From Clostridia bacterium (GTDB taxonomy: Bacteria > Bacillota > Clostridia > Oscillospirales > Acutalibacteraceae), in the NCBI GenBank assembly GCA_900763035.1, contig CAAFIS010000089.1, positions 1-10,668 of the forward strand: a stretch of DNA of 10,668 nucleotides, written 5' to 3'. Numbering within the stretch: the stretch's first letter is position 1; every line of letters starts with the position of its first letter. The notes under the pieces are model-generated. The model saw only the letters and a list, made by a program, of their open reading frames with translations. It was not told the DNA's origin and did no database searches. The translations under genes and the position numbers were made by a program. Positions 2,044-10,603 of this stretch are shown in pieces.

Positions 2044-2088
2044 CGGTCCTGCATCTCCTTTACTCGGCATCCGGGGACGATCGATGTG

Positions 2089-2115
2089 CTAGCACTCTTT
2101 GCCCCCGAGTGCTAA
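2089..2115 (-). promoter_or_regulatory. CIRCE operator of the hrcA-grpE-dnaK operon
   Basis: Read on the minus strand the site is TTAGCACTC, nine bases, GAGTGCTAG. It matches the CIRCE consensus (TTAGCACTC-N9-GAGTGCTAA) at every position except the last base. It begins four bases past the -10 box of the hrcA promoter, so bound HrcA would cover the transcription start. It is the only CIRCE seen in the window. Confidence 0.97.
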
Positions 2116-2119
2116 TGTT

Positions 2120-2148
2120 AGATTACCACGCTTTTGCCCCGCTGTCAA
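2120..2148 (-). promoter_or_regulatory. Sigma-A type promoter of the hrcA operon
   Basis: A perfect -35 TTGACA (2143-2148, minus strand) and a -10 TAATCT (2120-2125) are separated by exactly 17 bases, with CIRCE immediately downstream. The -10 box is only a moderate match (3 of 6), but the spacing and the abutting operator make the assignment firm. Confidence 0.85.
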
Positions 2149-2181
2149 GAGGCAATTGTGAATGTTTTGTTAAACCTTTCG

Positions 2182-2209
2182 GCTTTTTTGCCGCACGCGG
2201 CGAAAAAGC
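2182..2209. repeat. Long inverted repeat, T-run / GCCGC-GCGGC / A-run, in the divergent spacer
   Basis: This perfect-to-wobble inverted repeat has about 13 pairs: GCTTTTT on the left pairs with AAAAAGC on the right, around GCCGC-AC-GCGGC. On both strands the T-run precedes and the A-run follows the GC stem. That is the reverse of an intrinsic terminator, where U follows. It sits between the divergent hrcA promoter and the DUF11 gene. It may be a protein-binding palindrome or a cruciform-prone insulator; no function can be assigned from sequence. Confidence 0.5.
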
Positions 2210-2214
2210 ACACG

Positions 2215-2242
2215 CACCGGATGGACAGCGGCCCATATACTG
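2215..2242 (+). promoter_or_regulatory. Candidate mother-cell (sigma-K/E-like) promoter of the DUF11 gene
   Basis: CATATACTG at 2234-2242 fits the sigma-K -10 pattern CATANNNTA in 8 of 9 positions and also resembles the sigma-E -10 CATACANT. CACC at 2215-2218 fits the sigma-K -35 pattern mACm, although the 15-base gap is about one base short of the usual one. The same bases contain TATACT (2236-2241), a good sigma-A -10 lacking a recognisable -35. The start would fall near 2249, about 70 bases before the gene. This is a pattern match only. Confidence 0.4.
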
Positions 2243-2278
2243 ATAGTGGGACGTCTTGTCCGACGCGGGCGGCCGTCC

Positions 2279-2296
2279 TGCGCCTGCCCCGGCGCA
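2279..2296 (+). other. Leader hairpin ahead of the DUF11 gene
   Basis: TGCGCC-TGCCCC-GGCGCA is a perfect 6-bp stem with a 6-base loop, ending nine bases before the AGGAGG ribosome-binding site at 2305-2310. It could stabilise the mRNA 5' region or modulate initiation; neither can be decided from sequence. Confidence 0.4.
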
Positions 2297-2317
2297 TGAC
2301 CGACAGGAGGAGATCGG

Positions 2318-3172
2318 ATGGCGACTTTCACCAACCAAGCGACGCTGCGCTATACGGGCGGCGTCGTGAATTCGAACATCGCGACGGGCGAGCTGGTCGA
2401 TCCGCTCACCGTCACGAAAACGTCGCCGGGCGGCACGTACACGCCCGGCGAGAGCCTGACCTATGCGATCGGCATCGTCAATTCGGGCGAAGCGGCGGTG
2501 ACGGGTCTGACCGTGGAGGACGACCTCGGCGCGATCACGTTCGGCGCAGGCACGCTGCGCGCGCTGACGTATGAGGAGGGCTCCGTGCTGTACTACCGCA
2601 ACGGCGCCGTGCAGCCCGCGCCCGCCGTAACGGCGGATGCGGGCGGGCTGACCTTCACCGGGATCGCCGTCCCGGCGGGCGGCGACGCGGTGCTGATCTA
2701 CCGGGCGACCGTTTCGCCCTATGCCGCGCCCGGCGCGGGCGGCACGATCACGAACACCGTATCCGTGCGAAGCGGTACGGTCGGGCCGATCACGGCGGAG
2801 GAGACGGTATCCGCCGCAGCCGCGCCGCGGCTGACCATCGATAAGGGGCTGGCGCCCCGCACCGTGACCGAGAACGGCCGCGTGACCTACACGTTCACGA
2901 TCGGCAACCTCGGCAACACTGCGGCAACGGCCACGGACGGCGTCACCGTGACCGACACGTTCCTGCCCGTGCTGAGCGACCTCGTCGTCACGCTGGACGG
3001 CGAGACGCTCACCGCCGGCACGGACTATACCTACGCGCCCGCGACGGGCGAGTTCGCCACGGCGGCCGGGCGCATCACCGTGCCCGCCGCCGCATTCACG
3101 CAAAACGCAACGACCGGCGCATGGCAGACCGTCCCCGGCACTGCCGTGCTGACCGTGACCGGAACGATCTGA
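2318..3172 (+). CDS. Two-repeat DUF11 protein without signal peptide; possible self-assembling fibre subunit
   Basis: This 284-residue protein has a strong ribosome-binding site, AGGAGG at 2305-2310 and 7 bases from the ATG. It is Thr/Ala/Gly/Val-rich, contains no cysteine, and has only two lysines (K34, K176). There is no signal peptide, membrane segment or LPxTG anchor, unlike most large DUF11 surface proteins. Two DUF11-like domains are visible. The first runs about 30-150 (LTVTK at 30-34, then YTPGESLTYA, closing TITNTVSV at 143-150). The second runs about 172-284 (LTIDK at 172-176, then VTYTFTIGNLGN and VTVTDTF). The N-terminus TFTNQATLRY (3-12) matches the closing strand of domain one, while domain two ends at TGTI without it. 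The protein therefore reads as two ~142-residue units in permuted phase. Spore-appendage proteins P29a/b of Clostridium taeniosporum are, as I recall, of similar size and DUF11 type. The DUF11 call is firm; the biological role is inference. Confidence 0.8.
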   Translation: MATFTNQATLRYTGGVVNSNIATGELVDPLTVTKTSPGGTYTPGESLTYAIGIVNSGEAAVTGLTVEDDLGAITFGAGTLRALTYEEGSVLYYRNGAVQPAPAVTADAGGLTFTGIAVPAGGDAVLIYRATVSPYAAPGAGGTITNTVSVRSGTVGPITAEETVSAAAAPRLTIDKGLAPRTVTENGRVTYTFTIGNLGNTAATATDGVTVTDTFLPVLSDLVVTLDGETLTAGTDYTYAPATGEFATAAGRITVPAAAFTQNATTGAWQTVPGTAVLTVTGTI

Positions 3173-3210
3173 TGACCGCGGCGGGGCAGGCGCGGCAAGC
3201 AAAAAAGGGG

Positions 3211-3239
3211 TTGGCAAGTGCCGTAGGCTGTGCTATAAT
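3211..3239 (+). promoter_or_regulatory. Strong sigma-A promoter of the split transketolase operon
   Basis: TTGGCA (3211-3216, 5 of 6 to consensus), a 17-base spacer and a perfect TATAAT (3234-3239), with TGC directly before it as an extended -10. Transcription would start near 3246. This suggests strong vegetative expression, independent of the DUF11 gene upstream; no terminator is evident between that gene and this promoter. Confidence 0.9.
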
Positions 3240-3254
3240 AAGGATGAAGTAACG

Positions 3255-3275
3255 GCGTCCGCGGCAGACGGACGC
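3255..3275 (+). other. 5' leader hairpin of the transketolase operon
   Basis: GCGTCCG, a 7-base loop, and CGGACGC form a perfect 7-bp stem about 10 bases after the predicted transcription start and just ahead of the AAAGGG ribosome-binding site (3278-3283). It probably stabilises the mRNA 5' end. No known riboswitch can be recognised in so short a leader. Confidence 0.5.
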
Positions 3276-3290
3276 GGAAAGGGCGTAAAA

Positions 3291-4136
3291 ATGGATGCTT
3301 TGACCGAAAAGCAGTTGACCGTCATCGCAACGAAGCTGCGCATGGCGATCATCGAAGGCGTGTACCACGCAAAAAGCGGTCACCCGGGCGGTTCGCTGTC
3401 GATCGCGGAGGATCTGGCGTATCTGTACTGGAAAGAGATGCACATCGACCCCACCGATCCGAAGAAGCCCGACCGTGACCGCTTCGTGCTGTCCAAAGGG
3501 CACGCGGCCCCGGCGCTGTATGCCGCGCTGGCGCTGCGCGGGTATTTCTCCACCGACCTGATCCCCACCCTGCGGCACACCGATTCCATCCTTCAGGGAC
3601 ATCCGGACATGAAGCATATCCCCGGCGTGGATATGTCCTCCGGCTCGCTCGGGCAGGGGATCTCCGCCGCGGTAGGCATGGCGCTGGCTGCCAAGCTGGA
3701 CGGCGCGACGTGGCGCGTATACACGATCTTGGGCGACGGCGAGCTGGAGGAAGGTCAGGTCTGGGAGGCGGCGATGTTCGCCGCGGCCAAAAAGCTGGAC
3801 GACCTCGTCGTGATCGTGGACAACAACGATCTGCAGATCGACGGGCGCATCGGCGAGGTCAACTCGCCGTATCCGATCGCCGAAAAATTCGCGGCGTTCG
3901 GCTTCCACACGATCGAGATCGACGGCCACGATCTAAAGCAGATCGAGAACGCCCTGCGCACGGCGCTGACCGTCAAGGGCAAGCCCACCGCGATCGTACA
4001 GAAAACGGTCAAGGGCAAGGGCGTATCGTTCATGGAGGATCAGGTAGGCTGGCACGGCAACGCACCGAAGCAGGAGCAATACGAGGCGGCGATGGCCGAG
4101 CTGCGCGCGCGGCTGACCGAATTGGAGGGCGAATGA
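3291..4136 (+). CDS. Transketolase, N-terminal (thiamine diphosphate-binding) subunit
   Basis: First half of a two-gene transketolase, which moves two-carbon ketol units between sugar phosphates in the non-oxidative pentose phosphate pathway in the cytosol. The protein is 281 residues, matching the family of separate N-terminal subunits. Visible motifs are SGHPGGSLS (29-37), LSKGHAAPALY (67-77, cofactor-contacting His), GSLGQG (118-123), and the thiamine diphosphate/Mg site that starts GDGELEEGQ (148-156) and ends DNN (177-179). The active enzyme needs the next gene, which starts one base after this stop, so the two are co-translated and probably form a heterotetramer. The start follows AAAGGG with suitable spacing. 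Split transketolases are known in many Firmicutes and archaea. Confidence 0.95.
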   Translation: MDALTEKQLTVIATKLRMAIIEGVYHAKSGHPGGSLSIAEDLAYLYWKEMHIDPTDPKKPDRDRFVLSKGHAAPALYAALALRGYFSTDLIPTLRHTDSILQGHPDMKHIPGVDMSSGSLGQGISAAVGMALAAKLDGATWRVYTILGDGELEEGQVWEAAMFAAAKKLDDLVVIVDNNDLQIDGRIGEVNSPYPIAEKFAAFGFHTIEIDGHDLKQIENALRTALTVKGKPTAIVQKTVKGKGVSFMEDQVGWHGNAPKQEQYEAAMAELRARLTELEGE

Positions 4137-4137
4137 T

Positions 4138-5085
4138 ATGGCACTGCAAAAACAGGCGACCCGCGACGCCTACGGCGAGGCGCTCGTCGAGCTGGGCGCG
4201 CAGCGCGAAGATCTGATCGTTCTTGACGCAGACCTTGCCGCCGCGACCAAGACCGGGATGTTCAAAAAAGCGTACCCCGACCGGTTCATCGACGTCGGCA
4301 TCGCCGAGGGCAACATGATCGGCGTGGCAGCCGGGCTGGCCGCCGCAGGCAAGCTGGTGTTCGCCTCCTCGTTCGCGATGTTCGCGGCGGGCCGGGCGTT
4401 CGAGCAGGTGCGCAACGCCGTCGGCTACCCGCACCTCAACGTCAAGATCGGCGCGACCCATGCGGGCGTGTCCGTCGGCGAGGACGGCGCGACACACCAG
4501 TGCTGCGAGGATATCGGCCTGATGCGCACGATCCCCGGCATGGTGATCCTGAACCCGGCCGACGCCGTCGAGGCGAAAAAGGCCGTGTTCGCGGCCGCCG
4601 CGTGGGACGGCCCGGTGTACCTGCGCTTCGGGCGGCTGGCGCTGCCGGTCGTGACCGACGAGGCTGCTCCCTTCACGATCGGGCAGGCACAGACGCTGCG
4701 CGAGGGAGGCGATGTCACGATCATCGCCACCGGACTGCCGGTGGGCATGGCGCTGGAGGCGGCCGAGCTGCTGGCCGCCGAGGGCATCGCCGCGCGGGTG
4801 ATGAACATGGCCACGATCAAGCCGATCGACCGCGACGCGGTCGCCCGTGCGGCGGCCGAAACGGGCGCGATCGTCACCGTCGAGGAGCATAACATCATCG
4901 GCGGGCTGGGCAGCGCGGTGGCCGAGGTCGTTTGTGAAACGACGCCCGTGCCGGTGGTGCGCGTCGGCGTGCAGGACACGTTCGGCCGATCCGGCCCGGC
5001 CGCGGAGCTGCTGACGCTGTTCGGCTTCACGCCGGGGCATATCGGCGAGGCGGCGCGCGAGGCGCTCGCCCGCAAAAAGAACTGA
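4138..5085 (+). CDS. Transketolase, C-terminal (pyrimidine-binding) subunit
   Basis: Second half of the split transketolase. The protein has 315 residues. The pyrimidine-binding domain holds FIDVGIAEGNM (50-60), in which E57 is the glutamate that activates thiamine diphosphate. It is followed by SSFAMFAAGRAFEQVRN and by THAGVSVGEDGATHQ, which contacts substrate. The C-terminal transketolase domain follows (VTIIATG and MNMATIKPID, then TVEEHNIIGGLG), ending LARKKN. Related domains occur in 1-deoxyxylulose-5-phosphate synthase and pyruvate dehydrogenase E1-beta. However, the partner gene one base upstream and the absence of a fused N-domain fit transketolase. The ribosome-binding site GGAGGG (4124-4129) lies inside the end of the upstream gene, which indicates coupled translation. 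Confidence 0.95.
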   Translation: MALQKQATRDAYGEALVELGAQREDLIVLDADLAAATKTGMFKKAYPDRFIDVGIAEGNMIGVAAGLAAAGKLVFASSFAMFAAGRAFEQVRNAVGYPHLNVKIGATHAGVSVGEDGATHQCCEDIGLMRTIPGMVILNPADAVEAKKAVFAAAAWDGPVYLRFGRLALPVVTDEAAPFTIGQAQTLREGGDVTIIATGLPVGMALEAAELLAAEGIAARVMNMATIKPIDRDAVARAAAETGAIVTVEEHNIIGGLGSAVAEVVCETTPVPVVRVGVQDTFGRSGPAAELLTLFGFTPGHIGEAAREALARKKN

Positions 5086-7587: not shown

Positions 7588-8415
7588 TCACTCCTTGGCC
7601 ATCTCGCAGGTCTTTTCATAGGCTGCCGTGACGGCATCCATCGCCGCACAGCGCAGACCGGCGCGCTCCAGCGCGTGTACGCCGCGGATCGTGGTGCCGC
7701 CGGGGCTGCACACCGCATCCTTCAGCTCGCCGGGCGTGCGGCCGGTGGACAGCACCATCTGCGCCGCGCCCAGCACGGTCTGGGCGGCCAGCTCCGTCGC
7801 GACCTGCCGCGGCAGGCCGCATTCGACCGCGCCGTCCGCCAGCCCCTCGATGAACAGGTAGACGAACGCCGGTCCGCAGCCGGACAGCGCGCTGCCGGCA
7901 TCGATCAGCCGTTCCGGGACCGATACCAGCCGTCCCGCCGAGCCGAGCAGCACACAGAACTGCTCCAGCTGATCGGCGTTGACCCCGTTGGCCCCGGCAT
8001 ACAGGACCACGCCCTTGCCGACCTCAACGGGCGTGTTCGGCATGATGCGGATCGTGGGGCAGGTCATGCCCAGCATTTCGGTGATCCGGGCGACGGACAC
8101 GCCCGCCGCCATGGAAACGAGCACCGGCGGCATCAGCCGCTCCGCCAGCACGGGGCGCACCGTTTCCAGCAGCTCCGGCAGTGCCTGCGGCTTGACGCCG
8201 AGGAAGAGATAGTCGCTTTGTGCGATAACGGCGGCAGTATCCATCACGATGGCGTGCCTGCCCAGCCGCAGTGCCAGCTGCGTCGCCTTGCGCCGATCGT
8301 GATCCGTCAGCAGCAGGCTGACATCGGACGCCTTGTTGACGGCCATCGCCAATGCGCCGCCCATGTTCCCCGTCCCGATGAAGCCGACGTTGACGGGACG
8401 TTTTTCCTTGACCAT
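7588..8415 (-). CDS. proC: Pyrroline-5-carboxylate reductase ProC
   Basis: Last step of proline synthesis: NAD(P)H-dependent reduction of pyrroline-5-carboxylate to proline, in the cytosol. The protein is 275 residues, the usual size. The Rossmann nucleotide-binding loop is GFIGTGNMGGA (11-21). SGCGPAFVYLFIEGL and ELKDAVCSPGGTTIRGV in the C-terminal helical dimerisation domain carry the family signature. The reading frame is open further upstream, but GAAAGGAAGA lies just before the ATG at 8415 and the conserved Rossmann strand begins seven codons later, so that start is chosen. It is third in the proB-proA-proC order, 32 bases after proA, and ends 31 bases before the shared terminator. Confidence 0.96.
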   Translation of the reverse strand: MVKEKRPVNVGFIGTGNMGGALAMAVNKASDVSLLLTDHDRRKATQLALRLGRHAIVMDTAAVIAQSDYLFLGVKPQALPELLETVRPVLAERLMPPVLVSMAAGVSVARITEMLGMTCPTIRIMPNTPVEVGKGVVLYAGANGVNADQLEQFCVLLGSAGRLVSVPERLIDAGSALSGCGPAFVYLFIEGLADGAVECGLPRQVATELAAQTVLGAAQMVLSTGRTPGELKDAVCSPGGTTIRGVHALERAGLRCAAMDAVTAAYEKTCEMAKE

Positions 8416-8447
8416 ACCGATCTTCCTTTCTTTCGTCACGGCAGGAG

Positions 8448-9698
8448 TCAGCGCACCTGACCGCTGCCAAGGATGACGTATTTGTAGGTCGTCAGCTCCC
8501 GCAGGCCCATCGGGCCGCGGGCGTGCAGCTTTTGCGTGGAGATGCCCATCTCGCACCCCAGGCCGAACTCGCCGCCATCGGTGAACCGGGTGGAGGCGTT
8601 GACGTACACGGCCGCGCTGTCCACGGCGGCGGTGAACCGGACCGCTGCGGCCTCGTCCGCGGTGATGATGCTTTCGCTGTGGTGGGTGGAATGTGCCGCG
8701 ATGTGTCGGATGGCGGCATCCAGATCGTCCACGACCGCCACGGCCAGAATGTAGTCGAGAAATTCGGTATCGAAGTCATCCGGCCCGGCAGGCGTGCCGG
8801 AGATGAACGCCGCCGCCGCGGGGTCTAGCCGCAGCTCGACCGGATGGGGGCGCTCCGGCGCGCACAGGCGCGCCGCCAGCCGCGGCAGGAAATGCGCCGC
8901 GATGTCCCGATGGACAAGGCAGACCTCCGCCGCATTGCACACCGAGGGACGGCTGGTCTTGGCGTTGTCGATCACCGCGAGCGCCATGTCCTCGTCCGCT
9001 GCGCGGTCGACATAGATGTGGCAGATGCCGGTGCCCGTCTGGATGCACGGGACGGTCGCCTGCTCCACGCAGGCGCGGATCAGTCCCGCACCGCCGCGCG
9101 GGATCAGCAGATCCACCAGCCCTTCGGCGCGCATCAGCTCGTGCGCACTGTCGCGCGAGGTATCCTCCACCGGCACGATCAGGTCGGGATCCAGTCCCGC
9201 GCCCCGCAGCGCGCCGCGCAGGGCCGCGGCGATGGCCGCCGTACTGTGCGCGGCCTCTTTGCCGCCGCGCAGCACGCAGACGTTGCCGGACTTGATCGCC
9301 AGCGCCGCCGCGTCGGCCGTCACGTTCGGCCGGCTCTCGAAAATGATCGCAACGACGCCCAGCGGCACGCGTACCTTGCGGATCAGCAGACCGTTATCGC
9401 GGCGATGCTCCTCGATGATCTCGCCCACCGGGTCCGGCAGCGCCGCGACCTGACGGATGCCCTGTGCCATGACGCGGATGCGCCCCTCGTCCAGCCGCAG
9501 CCGGTCGAGCATGACGGCGGAGATCGCGCCCTCGGCCGCGGAAAGATCCTTTGCGTTCTCGCTCAGGATCGTATCCTTCGCCGCAAGCAGCGCGTCCGCC
9601 ATCGCGGGCAGTGCCGCGGCGCGCTGCGCCGCCGTTTGCGTGCCGAGACGCGCGGCAGCCCGCTTCGCGCGCAGCAGAAGCTCTTTCGTCGGGATCAT
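8448..9698 (-). CDS. proA: Gamma-glutamyl phosphate reductase ProA
   Basis: Second step of proline synthesis: NADPH reduction of gamma-glutamyl phosphate to glutamate semialdehyde, which cyclises to pyrroline-5-carboxylate. The protein is 416 residues, full length for this aldehyde dehydrogenase-superfamily enzyme. Visible are [20 protein letters not shown] (112-131, cofactor region), LRGGKEA (143-149), [11 protein letters not shown] (221-231) and the catalytic cysteine C254 in [11 protein letters not shown] (250-260). Near the C-terminus, [20 protein letters not shown] is the closing active-site segment. The ATG overlaps the proB stop (ATGA), and GGAGGAG sits just upstream inside proB. Coupled translation fits the idea that ProB hands labile glutamyl phosphate directly to ProA. 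Confidence 0.97.
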
Positions 9699-10474
9699 AG
9701 GCTCTCCTCCTTTGCGGGCAAAAAGCGTGTGCCGACCGCCTTGCCCTCTACGATGGCGTACAGCACGTCCGGATCCTTTCCGTTGGCGATCACCATGGGG
9801 ATGCCCGCCGCGGTACTGATCTCGGCCGCACGGAGCTTCGTCTGCATCCCGCCCGTGCCGAGCGTGCTGCCCGCGCCGCCGGTCATGGCGCGGATCTGCG
9901 GCGTGATGCCCTCCACCACCGGCAGCAGACGCGCACGCGGATCCTTGTGGGGATCGGCGGTGTACAGGCCGTCGATGTCAGACAGCAGGATCAGCAGATC
10001 CGCCTGCACCGCCACGGCCACGATCGCGCCCAGCGTATCGTTATCGCCGATCGCGATCTCCTCGGTCGCGACGGTGTCGTTCTCATTGACGATCGGCAGC
10101 GCGCCCAGCTCCAGCAGGCGCGTGAGGGTGTTGTGGACGTTGTGCTCCCGCTGCGGGTGCTGCACGTCGTCCGCCGTCAGCAGCACCTGCGCCACGGTGT
10201 GGTTGTGTTCCGTGAACAGCTTATCGTAGGTGTACATCAGCTCGCACTGGCCGACGGCAGCGGCAGCCTGCTTGGTAGGCATATCCGCCGGGCGGTGACC
10301 GAGCGACAGCTTGCCGACCCCCATGCCGATGGCCCCGGAGGAGACGAGCACCAGCTCGTGTCCGGCGTTCTTCAGGTCGCTCATGACCTCGCACAGCCGC
10401 CCGACGCGGCGGATGTTCAGCAGGCCCGTGGCGTGGGCCAGCGTGGATGTTCCGACTTTGATGACGATGCGCAT
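9695..10474 (-). CDS. proB: Glutamate 5-kinase ProB, short form without PUA domain
   Basis: First and normally feedback-controlled step of proline synthesis: ATP-dependent phosphorylation of glutamate. The protein is 259 residues and consists of the amino-acid kinase domain only. KVGTST (6-11) and SSGAIGMG (45-52) bind phosphate; PIVNENDTV (127-135) contacts glutamate; [11 protein letters not shown] (165-175) and LGTGGMQTK (205-213) form the ATP site. Enterobacterial ProB is about 370 residues because of a C-terminal PUA domain; here the chain ends right after the kinase fold (FLPAKEESL) and runs straight into proA, so this is a natural short form rather than a broken gene. The frame is open upstream, but AAGGAGA at 10481-10487 selects the ATG at 10474, where the conserved [11 protein letters not shown] begins. 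Confidence 0.96.
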
Positions 10475-10525
10475 GATCGTTCTCCTTTTTTCGCGCGGTG
10501 CGCGGATCTGTTCCCGTTCGGCAAC

Positions 10526-10554
10526 AGCATACCACGATCGGCGGCATTTCGCAA
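10526..10554 (-). promoter_or_regulatory. Probable sigma-A promoter of the proBAC operon
   Basis: On the minus strand, TTGCGA (10549-10554) and TATGCT (10526-10531) are 17 bases apart, each matching consensus in 4 of 6, with TGG before the -10 as an extended element. The start would be near 10519, giving a leader of about 45 bases. That leaves no room for a T-box, and no T-box core was seen. Confidence 0.65.
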
Positions 10555-10603
10555 GATGTGGGCAAAAATTCTCCGTCACATCGCCGGATCCGGCAAAAAA
10601 CGG

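What the first reader, a model, noticed from the sequence alone, without database searches (positions are those of the whole stretch)
2318..3172. DUF11 protein is laid out as two circularly permuted ~142-residue units, suggesting head-to-tail donor-strand polymerisation
Seen: the N-terminal segment TFTNQATLRY (3-12) aligns with TITNTVSVRS (143-152), the closing strand of the first domain. The chain ends at TGTI (281-284), exactly where the second domain would need that same strand. The 284 residues thus divide into two units of 142. Known: DUF11 domains are immunoglobulin-like beta sandwiches that typically close with a TxTNxAxV strand. Inference: the orphan N-terminal strand of one subunit completes the open C-terminal domain of the next, as in donor-strand fibres (pili, spore appendages). 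The small size, two domains and strong ribosome-binding site fit an abundant structural subunit.
Basis: partly seen in the sequence, partly recalled or inferred. Interest (0 to 1): 0.75.

Follow-up and report, generated by a model that had tools for sequence, protein, structure and literature searches.

The report
Predicted self-welding spore fibre subunit
A small protein found in many gut Clostridia looks built so that the first strands of one copy plug into, and may chemically weld to, the unfinished last domain of the next copy, which would make a tough fibre on spores; this is predicted from sequence and not yet shown.

Summary
The 284-residue protein is two units of about 141 residues, each a two-strand hairpin followed by a DUF11 (CLIPPER) domain. 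Residues 2-26 match the hairpin at 142-166 that closes domain 1. Domain 2 lacks that hairpin. By a simple motif test the layout holds in 327 of 360 listed homologues.

New here: (1) Both domains carry the isopeptide residues of DUF11. Domain 1 has Lys34-Asp68-Asn146. Domain 2 has Lys176 and Asp213 but no closing-strand Asn; the matching Asn is N6 in the N-terminal strand. K176-D213-N6 is kept in 448 of 459 rows, and K34 and K176 are the protein's only lysines. (2) The N-hairpin coevolves with domain 2 and loses AlphaFold confidence when domain 2 is removed. (3) 73 of 80 upstream regions carry a sigma-K-like -10 box, usually followed by a leader hairpin.

Best reading: a late-sporulation mother-cell protein that assembles head to tail by donor-hairpin complementation, probably locked by a Lys176-Asn6 isopeptide bond. 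That the hairpin completes domain 2 is well supported. That it does so between chains, that the bond forms, and that fibres exist are untested; a self-closed monomer is not excluded.

The parts
2215..2218 (+). -35-like CACC, 15 nt before the -10 box (sigma-K type mACm)
   Evidence: read from the window; mACm at spacer 15 or 16 in 31 of 73 anchored upstream regions (logo)
2234..2242 (+). CATATACTG, -10 box of sigma-K/sigma-E type
   Evidence: CATANNNT in 73 of 80 upstream regions, 50 shuffles mean 8.1 and max 14
2249..2261 (+). short leader stem-loop (4 bp, GGAC/GTCC, found by eye) near the expected transcript start; weak in this window, stronger in many relatives
   Evidence: stem of 6 bp or more in 47 of 73 leaders against a shuffled mean of 13.5; the window's own 38-nt leader has z -1.5 and folds otherwise
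2305..2312 (+). ribosome-binding site AGGAGGAG
2318..3172 (+). two-domain DUF11/CLIPPER protein, 284 aa, no signal peptide (by eye)
2318..2395 (+). donor hairpin, residues 1-26 (strands 2-12 and 15-26)
2333..2335 (+). Asn6, proposed isopeptide partner of Lys176
   Evidence: N in 453 of 456 rows
2396..2821 (+). domain 1, residues 27-168, complete CnaA-like/CLIPPER fold including its closing hairpin 143-166
2417..2419 (+). Lys34 (isopeptide Lys of domain 1)
   Evidence: 458 of 459 rows
2519..2521 (+). Asp68 (catalytic Asp of domain 1)
   Evidence: 459 of 459 rows
2753..2755 (+). Asn146 (isopeptide Asn of domain 1, penultimate strand)
   Evidence: 457 of 458 rows
2822..3169 (+). domain 2, residues 169-284, CLIPPER fold lacking the closing hairpin
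2843..2845 (+). Lys176 (isopeptide Lys of domain 2)
   Evidence: 457 of 457 rows
2954..2956 (+). Asp213 (catalytic Asp of domain 2)
   Evidence: 456 of 457 rows

Best explanation
The gene makes a spore-surface structural subunit, transcribed late in the mother cell from a sigma-K-type promoter and kept in the cytoplasm (no signal peptide) until the mother cell lyses. Each subunit starts with a two-strand hairpin that is the missing closing hairpin of a DUF11/CLIPPER domain. The hairpin of one subunit inserts beside strand A of domain 2 of another, so subunits join head to tail into a string of complete CLIPPER domains. In domain 1, Lys34 and Asn146 form the usual internal isopeptide bond, with Asp68 as catalyst. 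In domain 2, Lys176 and Asp213 are completed by Asn6 of the incoming hairpin, which would weld subunits covalently, as a natural counterpart of split-pilin tags. Shown here: the layout, its conservation, the triads as conserved residues, the coupling of hairpin and domain 2, the promoter pattern. Inferred: completion between rather than within chains, bond formation, fibres, spore location.
For: Permuted-unit homology; unit 2 stops at DUF11 position 81 of 114 while domain 1 runs to 112. Triads: K34-D68-N146 in 456 of 459 rows and K176-D213-N6 in 448 of 459 (rows not de-duplicated). K34 and K176 are the window protein's only lysines, and 186 of 330 near-complete rows have exactly two. N6 is the homologue of N146 at offset 140. 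A DUF11 domain with Lys-Asp-Asn has a crystallographic isopeptide bond, and in CnaA-like domains the partners lie on first and penultimate strands (PMC12617251, passages and section 2.4). Coevolution: 9 of the top 100 couplings join residues 2-25 to 172-190 (1.2 expected by area), mirrored by 4 between the domain 1 closing hairpin and 30-48; crossed blocks 1 and 0. AlphaFold: hairpin pLDDT 85/90/83 with domain 2, 62/63/69 without; domain 1 blocks change little, at most 95 to 89 at 131-140. The hairpin + domain 1 model aligns over residues 1-168 to antigen I/II C123 (6e3f, 156 residues, 3.8 A). Strands 2-12 and 274-284 have the lowest entropy of eight segments compared (1.13 and 1.24; mean 1.72). 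Sigma-K-like promoter; 23 of 25 carrier genomes have SpoIVA.
Against: No experiment. Single-chain AlphaFold is compatible with the hairpin closing domain 2 of its own chain. The coupling signal vanishes when N-blocks are permuted within clusters at 62% identity but not at 75%, so it rests on between-clade differences and shared ancestry is not excluded. The most direct test, correlating the domain 1 closing-contact map with the hairpin-domain 2 map, was weak (r 0.044, 6 of 67 shifted maps as high; 0.049 and again 6 of 67 in the close rows), and the predicted pairing of 3-12 with 275-284 gives no coupling. N6 is not absolute: T in P0001, the window's nearest homologue (99% identical), H in P0072 and P0147. 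SpoIVA is common anyway (196 of 268 genomes without the family), so that enrichment is weak; G098 and G193 carry the gene without a SpoIVA hit. The full -35/-10 pattern is met by only 29 of 80 upstream regions. No conserved neighbour that could anchor or cap a fibre.
Confidence: 0.5

Rival explanations
1. Self-complemented monomer: the N-hairpin folds back and completes domain 2 of its own chain (with or without a K176-N6 bond), giving a closed, very stable two-domain protein that does not polymerise this way.
For: In the single-chain AlphaFold model the hairpin is confident only when domain 2 is present. FimA pilins show that a donor strand can also insert intramolecularly (PMC6615685, abstract). 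The coevolution cannot tell cis from trans.
Against: Linkers are short (27-29 and 167-171), so closure needs a two-domain ring with side-by-side domains; VIA aligns the full model over 28-284 with two-domain pilins (8wgg, 169 residues, 3.7 A), which suggests end-to-end packing.
Confidence: 0.25
2. Donor-hairpin polymer without covalent welding between subunits: N6 and K176 are conserved for packing only.
For: All structural evidence for hairpin-domain 2 complementation holds without a bond. [quoted passage not shown] P0001, P0072 and P0147 lack N6.
Against: Lys, Asp and Asn are each kept in over 99% of the rows that have a residue there, at the catalytic positions, and other lysines are few (median 2 per protein).
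Confidence: 0.15
3. Ordinary soluble or coat-embedded DUF11 protein; the N-terminal motif is only a conserved edge strand with no role in assembly.
For: No fibre, anchor gene or proteome evidence; stand-alone gene with no conserved neighbours.
Against: The N-hairpin is homologous to the strand pair that domain 2 lacks and its first strand is the most conserved of eight segments compared.
Confidence: 0.1

Closest known systems
DUF11/CLIPPER isopeptide domains (PF01345; 9IFR; PMC12617251, passages and section 2.4)
   Same: CnaA-like fold; Lys in the first strand, Asp mid-domain, Asn in the penultimate strand; domain 1 is a complete copy
   Different: Those described are intramolecular and typically sit in long secreted adhesins; here the second domain is split so that its Asn lies on the other end of the chain, and there is no signal peptide
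Clostridium taeniosporum spore-ribbon proteins P29a/P29b (PMC5749712, section 8 read)
   Same: 269 aa against 284; abundant spore appendage proteins; sigma-K-like promoters; in a gene cluster in which four of nine proteins contain DUF11
   Different: P29 genes sit in a cluster with collagen-like GP85; here a stand-alone gene. The text does not say which four proteins hold DUF11 (that is in a figure not held); that P29a/b are among them is my inference. P29 sequences were not obtained
Donor-strand polymers: FimA pili (PMC6615685) and TasA fibres (PMC9674648) (abstracts)
   Same: A strand of one subunit completes the fold of the neighbouring subunit
   Different: Here a two-strand hairpin in a two-domain DUF11 protein, with a probable covalent lock, no chaperone-usher genes nearby and no secretion signal
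Sporesilk, auto-crosslinking spore fibres (Remaut, Sleutel & Sogues 2025, seen only as cited in PMC12617251)
   Same: Cited as a natural autocatalytic intermolecular isopeptide bond, and as a spore fibre
   Different: Described there as an alpha-helical hairpin fold, not a CLIPPER domain; paper not held
F-ENA endospore appendages (PMC11952670, abstract and passages)
   Same: Spore fibres whose N-terminal hook peptide latches onto the neighbouring subunit
   Different: F-ENA is DUF4183 and has C3 symmetry; no such domain here
SpyTag/SpyCatcher (engineered split pilin domain; PMC6539128, listing only)
   Same: Isopeptide domain split into a strand and a receptor
   Different: CnaB-like (recalled), Lys-Asp and engineered; here CnaA-like, Lys-Asn and natural, if real

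Membership tests
DUF11/CLIPPER (PF01345) | Pfam match above the curated cut-off | tested here: met
   38.9 bits against 24.6
DUF11/CLIPPER (PF01345) | CnaA-like fold | tested here: met
DUF11/CLIPPER (PF01345) | Lys in first strand, Asp, Asn in penultimate strand | tested here: met
   K34-D68-N146 in domain 1, 456 of 459 rows; in domain 2 only with N6 from the N-terminus, 448 of 459. Positions matched by order and strand, not by a residue-level alignment to 9ifr
DUF11/CLIPPER (PF01345) | Isopeptide bond actually formed | not testable with these tools
   needs mass spectrometry or a structure
Donor-strand polymers (works like) | Ig-like fold that lacks strands in its own sequence order | tested here: met
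   unit 2 covers DUF11 2-81 of 114; strand order of the model
Donor-strand polymers (works like) | Donor segment inserts in a neighbouring chain | tested here: inconclusive
   hairpin-domain 2 coupling and AlphaFold dependence fit cis or trans
Chaperone-usher pili | Signal peptide and chaperone/usher genes beside it | tested here: not met
   by eye no signal peptide, strand from residue 2; window neighbours unrelated; no conserved neighbours in 80 loci
Sortase pili | Sorting signal and signal peptide | tested here: not met
   by eye: the chain ends right after strand 274-283 and starts in a strand
C. taeniosporum P29 appendage proteins | Late sporulation (sigma-K) promoter | tested here: met
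   as a sequence pattern; consensus from PMC5749712
C. taeniosporum P29 appendage proteins | Sequence homology to P29a/P29b | not tested
   P29 sequence not obtained
C. taeniosporum P29 appendage proteins | Cluster with collagen-like appendage genes | tested here: not met
   window neighbours are hrcA/grpE and transketolase; no recurrent partner in 80 loci
S-ENA / F-ENA | DUF3992 (recalled) / DUF4183 domain | tested here: not met
   Pfam scan at E 0.01 lists neither

The most novel reading that the evidence does not exclude
A natural covalent polymer built by one gene: the closing hairpin of a CLIPPER isopeptide domain has been moved to the other end of the chain, so that every head-to-tail contact is welded by an autocatalytic intermolecular Lys176-Asn6 bond. 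This would give proteolysis- and detergent-resistant spore fibres in perhaps one in twelve Clostridia species (25 of 293 genomes sampled), without sortase, chaperone, secretion or anchor genes beside it.
Probability: 0.42. Interest if true: 0.9.

Novelty: new variant of a known kind. Interest (0 to 1): 0.74.

Why it matters
The 80 named loci are mostly Clostridia, many from animal gut samples by their titles. If right, a spore-surface fibre of gut commensals can be made from one small soluble protein that polymerises and cross-links itself. That would bear on spore stickiness and transmission, suggest how DUF11-type appendage proteins assemble, and supply a natural CnaA-type split-ligation pair. 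It can be tested with one expression experiment and a denaturing gel.

Tried and rejected
Tried without use: PDB sequence search with the single protein (only 5od4, E 0.22) and with two profiles (best E 0.002 and 0.067); tRNA and Rfam scans (none); single-sequence similarity of 3-12 and 143-152 as proof (66 of 1000 shuffles reach it); a profile score without pseudocounts, whose numbers I do not use; strand-register coupling of 3-12 with 275-284 (none) and whole-map correlation (weak); SigK model TIGR02846 as a marker (30 of 30 genomes match, 11 over the cut-off, but 10 of 14 control genomes match too); searching the same 293 genomes with a broader alignment in the hope of P29-like genes (27 matches, no new full-length carrier). 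Sigma-70 promoter scan of 2071-3330 finds only the promoter before transketolase (3211-3239). Longer variants P0121 (440 aa) and P0142 (373 aa) hold internal duplications that look exact by eye and may be assembly artefacts; not used.

Considered and rejected: chaperone-usher or sortase pilin (no signal, no partner genes nearby); F-ENA or S-ENA (no such domain). Not tested: whether phages or plasmids carry the gene.

Full report
WHAT IS THERE. The window codes for a 284-residue protein at 2318-3172 (+) behind AGGAGGAG, between hrcA/grpE on the other strand and a split transketolase. Pfam finds DUF11 at residues 30-166 (38.9 bits, cut-off 24.6) and DUF7507 at 169-238, positions 1-69 of 105 (28.1, cut-off 27). 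By eye there is no signal peptide: a beta strand starts at residue 2. A homologue search hit its candidate cap: 2202 proteins at E <= 1e-3, 120 listed; of these 107 are 283 or 284 residues long. A second query (Roseburia faecis, L035) gave 6684, also capped; a third (distant member, L106) gave 125.

hhalign of residues 1-140 against 141-284, each from 459 rows, gives a local match that begins at residue 2 against 142 and runs 70 columns through hairpin and strands A-C, P 4e-9. If the columns of residues 2-26 are permuted, 2 of 12 runs still start in the first 10 residues; the other ten start at 17-29, and scores fall from 56.2 to 52.0-55.6. So the hairpin adds to a match carried mainly by the domain itself. 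Single-sequence similarity alone would not have been convincing (66 of 1000 shuffles). Domain 1 covers DUF11 positions 2-112 of 114; unit 2 ends at position 81, there below the cut-off. The last strand of domain 2 couples with its strand B (189-284, z 8.4), as strand 123-132 does in domain 1 (52-125, 50-127), so domain 2 stops one strand before the missing hairpin.

CONSERVATION. By a simple motif test, both the N-terminal motif and a C-terminus within three residues of the TGT-like end are present in 116 of 120, 112 of 120 and 99 of 120 listed proteins of the three searches. In 30 diverse members (29-59% identity to the window) N6, A8, S19 and N20 are among 17 invariant columns. Mean column entropy is 1.13 for residues 2-12 and 1.24 for 274-284, against 1.72 overall and 1.49 and 1.93 for the equivalent strands of domain 1.

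THE SPLIT TRIAD. DUF11 was renamed CLIPPER after a crystal structure showed a Lys-Asn isopeptide bond with a putative catalytic Asp; in CnaA-like domains the partners lie on first and penultimate strands (PMC12617251; passages and section 2.4 read). Domain 1 has all three: K34 (first strand), D68, N146 (penultimate strand), complete in 456 of 459 rows. Domain 2 has K176 and D213 at the matching places (offsets 142 and 145) but ends before the strand that should bear Asn. The homologue of N146, at offset 140, is N6. K176-D213-N6 is complete in 448 of 459 rows; of the 11 exceptions three replace N6 (T in P0001, H in P0072 and P0147), seven are gaps, and one is H for D213. K34 and K176 are the window protein's only lysines; 186 of 330 near-complete rows have exactly two. 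Of six positions that are conserved at 95% or more and identical in both units (offsets -140, 142, 145, 152 tried), three are this triad. None of the listings or passages I saw states such a split (searches); most subscription papers and preprints are not held, and not all of those searches aimed at this point.

DOES THE HAIRPIN SIT IN DOMAIN 2? Mean-field coupling analysis (459 rows, effective 211): of the top 100 pairs, 9 join residues 2-25 with 172-190 (strand A-A' of domain 2; 1.2 expected by area) and 4 join the domain 1 closing hairpin with 30-48; the crossed blocks hold 1 and 0. In the 338 rows closest to the window the numbers are 7, 3, 0 and 0. Against this: permuting N-blocks within clusters at 62% identity removes the signal (0 in three runs), while at 75% it stays (8, 9, 9), so it reflects differences between clades; the map correlation was weak; and no coupling was seen between 3-12 and 275-284, where several columns hardly vary. 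AlphaFold2 on the whole protein: mean pLDDT 94.9, pTM 0.80, N-terminal blocks 85/90/83. On residues 1-168 only: 62/63/69, domain 1 changed little (largest fall 95 to 89, residues 131-140). So in a single-chain model the hairpin needs domain 2. Single-chain prediction cannot show trans contacts, and FimA is known to do both (PMC6615685, abstract). The hairpin + domain 1 model aligns over residues 1-168 with antigen I/II C123 (6e3f, 156 residues, 3.8 A) and PrgB (8beg, 152 residues, 4.5 A); the other listed rows, except 8gsx (5-168, 10.9 A), start at residues 25-32. From the ranges alone, compared with the related row 3opu, I infer that the hairpin falls on the stretch just before a complete domain, where a preceding domain's last strands would be. 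The full model aligns with two-domain pilins over 28-284 (8wgg, 169 residues, 3.7 A). I read this as end-to-end packing, which favours trans; without coordinates I could not check.

WHEN IT IS MADE. Upstream of the start codon, CATANNNT lies within -90 to -21 in 73 of 80 regions (window plus 79 loci; 50 shuffles: mean 8.1, max 14). Anchored on it, mACm stands at spacer 15 or 16 in 31 of 73 regions, none at 17; control spacers 10-12 and 20-22 give 3 and 5. The whole pattern is in 29 of 80 focal and 1 of 778 other ORF upstream regions in the same loci; the stricter -10 alone in 62 of 80 and 31 of 778 (the other ORFs are mechanical calls). This matches the sigma-K consensus used for the C. taeniosporum appendage genes (PMC5749712, section 8). 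The window has CACC-N15-CATATACTG at 2215-2242. Nine distant relatives read on the right strand (L098, L099, L101, L102, L103, L106, L107, L108, L110) all have such a box at -46 to -62; of four nearer ones in the same output L088 has it at -53, L097 at -36, L096 at -95 and L092 lacks it. In a sample of 293 genomes of the class, 25 hold a full-length member (26 matches, one being a generic DUF11 repeat); 23 of the 25 have SpoIVA, against 196 of the other 268: a weak enrichment.

LEADER HAIRPIN. Just after the promoter most leaders form a stem-loop: mean z -2.2, below -1 in 59 of 73; stems of 6 bp or more in 47 of 73 (ten shuffles: mean 13.5, max 19), all 47 five-prime arms different, 35 of 47 starting 12-15 nt after the C of CATA, near the expected start site. 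The window's own stem is weak. I take this as an RNA-stabilising 5' hairpin of a highly expressed gene; untested.

CONTEXT. One copy per locus, with L058 broken in two pieces; single copy in five of six genomes checked, two copies in GAM79, one of them broken by TAG. No neighbour recurs in most loci (next best family in 14 of 80, an ABC-type ATPase judged by its sequence). So it acts alone or with partners encoded elsewhere.

MECHANISM AND ODDS. Hairpin completes domain 2: about 0.85. In trans, giving head-to-tail polymer: about 0.6. Covalent K176-N6 bond, given contact: about 0.7. Spore-associated: about 0.8. These are not independent; together I put the novel case at 0.42, and the best explanation, which leaves the weld as probable, at 0.5.

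COMPARISON. It is a member of DUF11/CLIPPER by sequence and fold. It works like donor-strand pili but is not a chaperone-usher or sortase pilin. It resembles C. taeniosporum P29a/b in size, promoter and probable domain; the paper says that four of nine cluster proteins hold DUF11 without naming them in the text I read, and shared ancestry was not tested. The natural precedent for a covalent spore fibre, sporesilk, is a different fold as cited in PMC12617251; I could not read it.

Noticed in passing
window 2090-2114: Inverted repeat TAGCACTC-N9-GAGTGCTA upstream of hrcA (minus strand), which looks like a CIRCE operator (recalled name)
   Followed up: no
window 3291-5085: Transketolase split into two adjacent genes (N- and C-terminal halves), with a sigma-70-like promoter at 3211-3239
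   Followed up: no
L058 8001-8852 and L086/L087: Lachnospiraceae bacterium GAM79 has two copies about 11 kb apart, one broken by an in-frame TAG
   Followed up: partly
P0001 residue 6: The nearest homologue (99% identical, 91 member sequences) has Thr instead of Asn6, the proposed cross-link residue
   Followed up: partly
P0121 and P0142: 440- and 373-residue versions with internal duplications that look exact by eye; either assembly artefacts or real unit duplication
   Followed up: partly
P0329, after about residue 286: A distant member with a Gly/Ser/Thr-rich repeat tail of about 75 residues, possibly a terminal or anchoring variant
   Followed up: no
leaders of L001-L080: A 5' leader hairpin directly after the promoter, with a different sequence in each of the 47 leaders that have a stem of 6 bp or more
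   Followed up: partly
L043: One family member lies on a contig titled Bacteroides sp. (MAG), perhaps misbinned
   Followed up: no
window 7588-10579 (minus strand): Proline biosynthesis genes (proC-, proA- and proB-like, named from their Pfam domains) lie in a row; the first two overlap by about 110 nt as called
   Followed up: no
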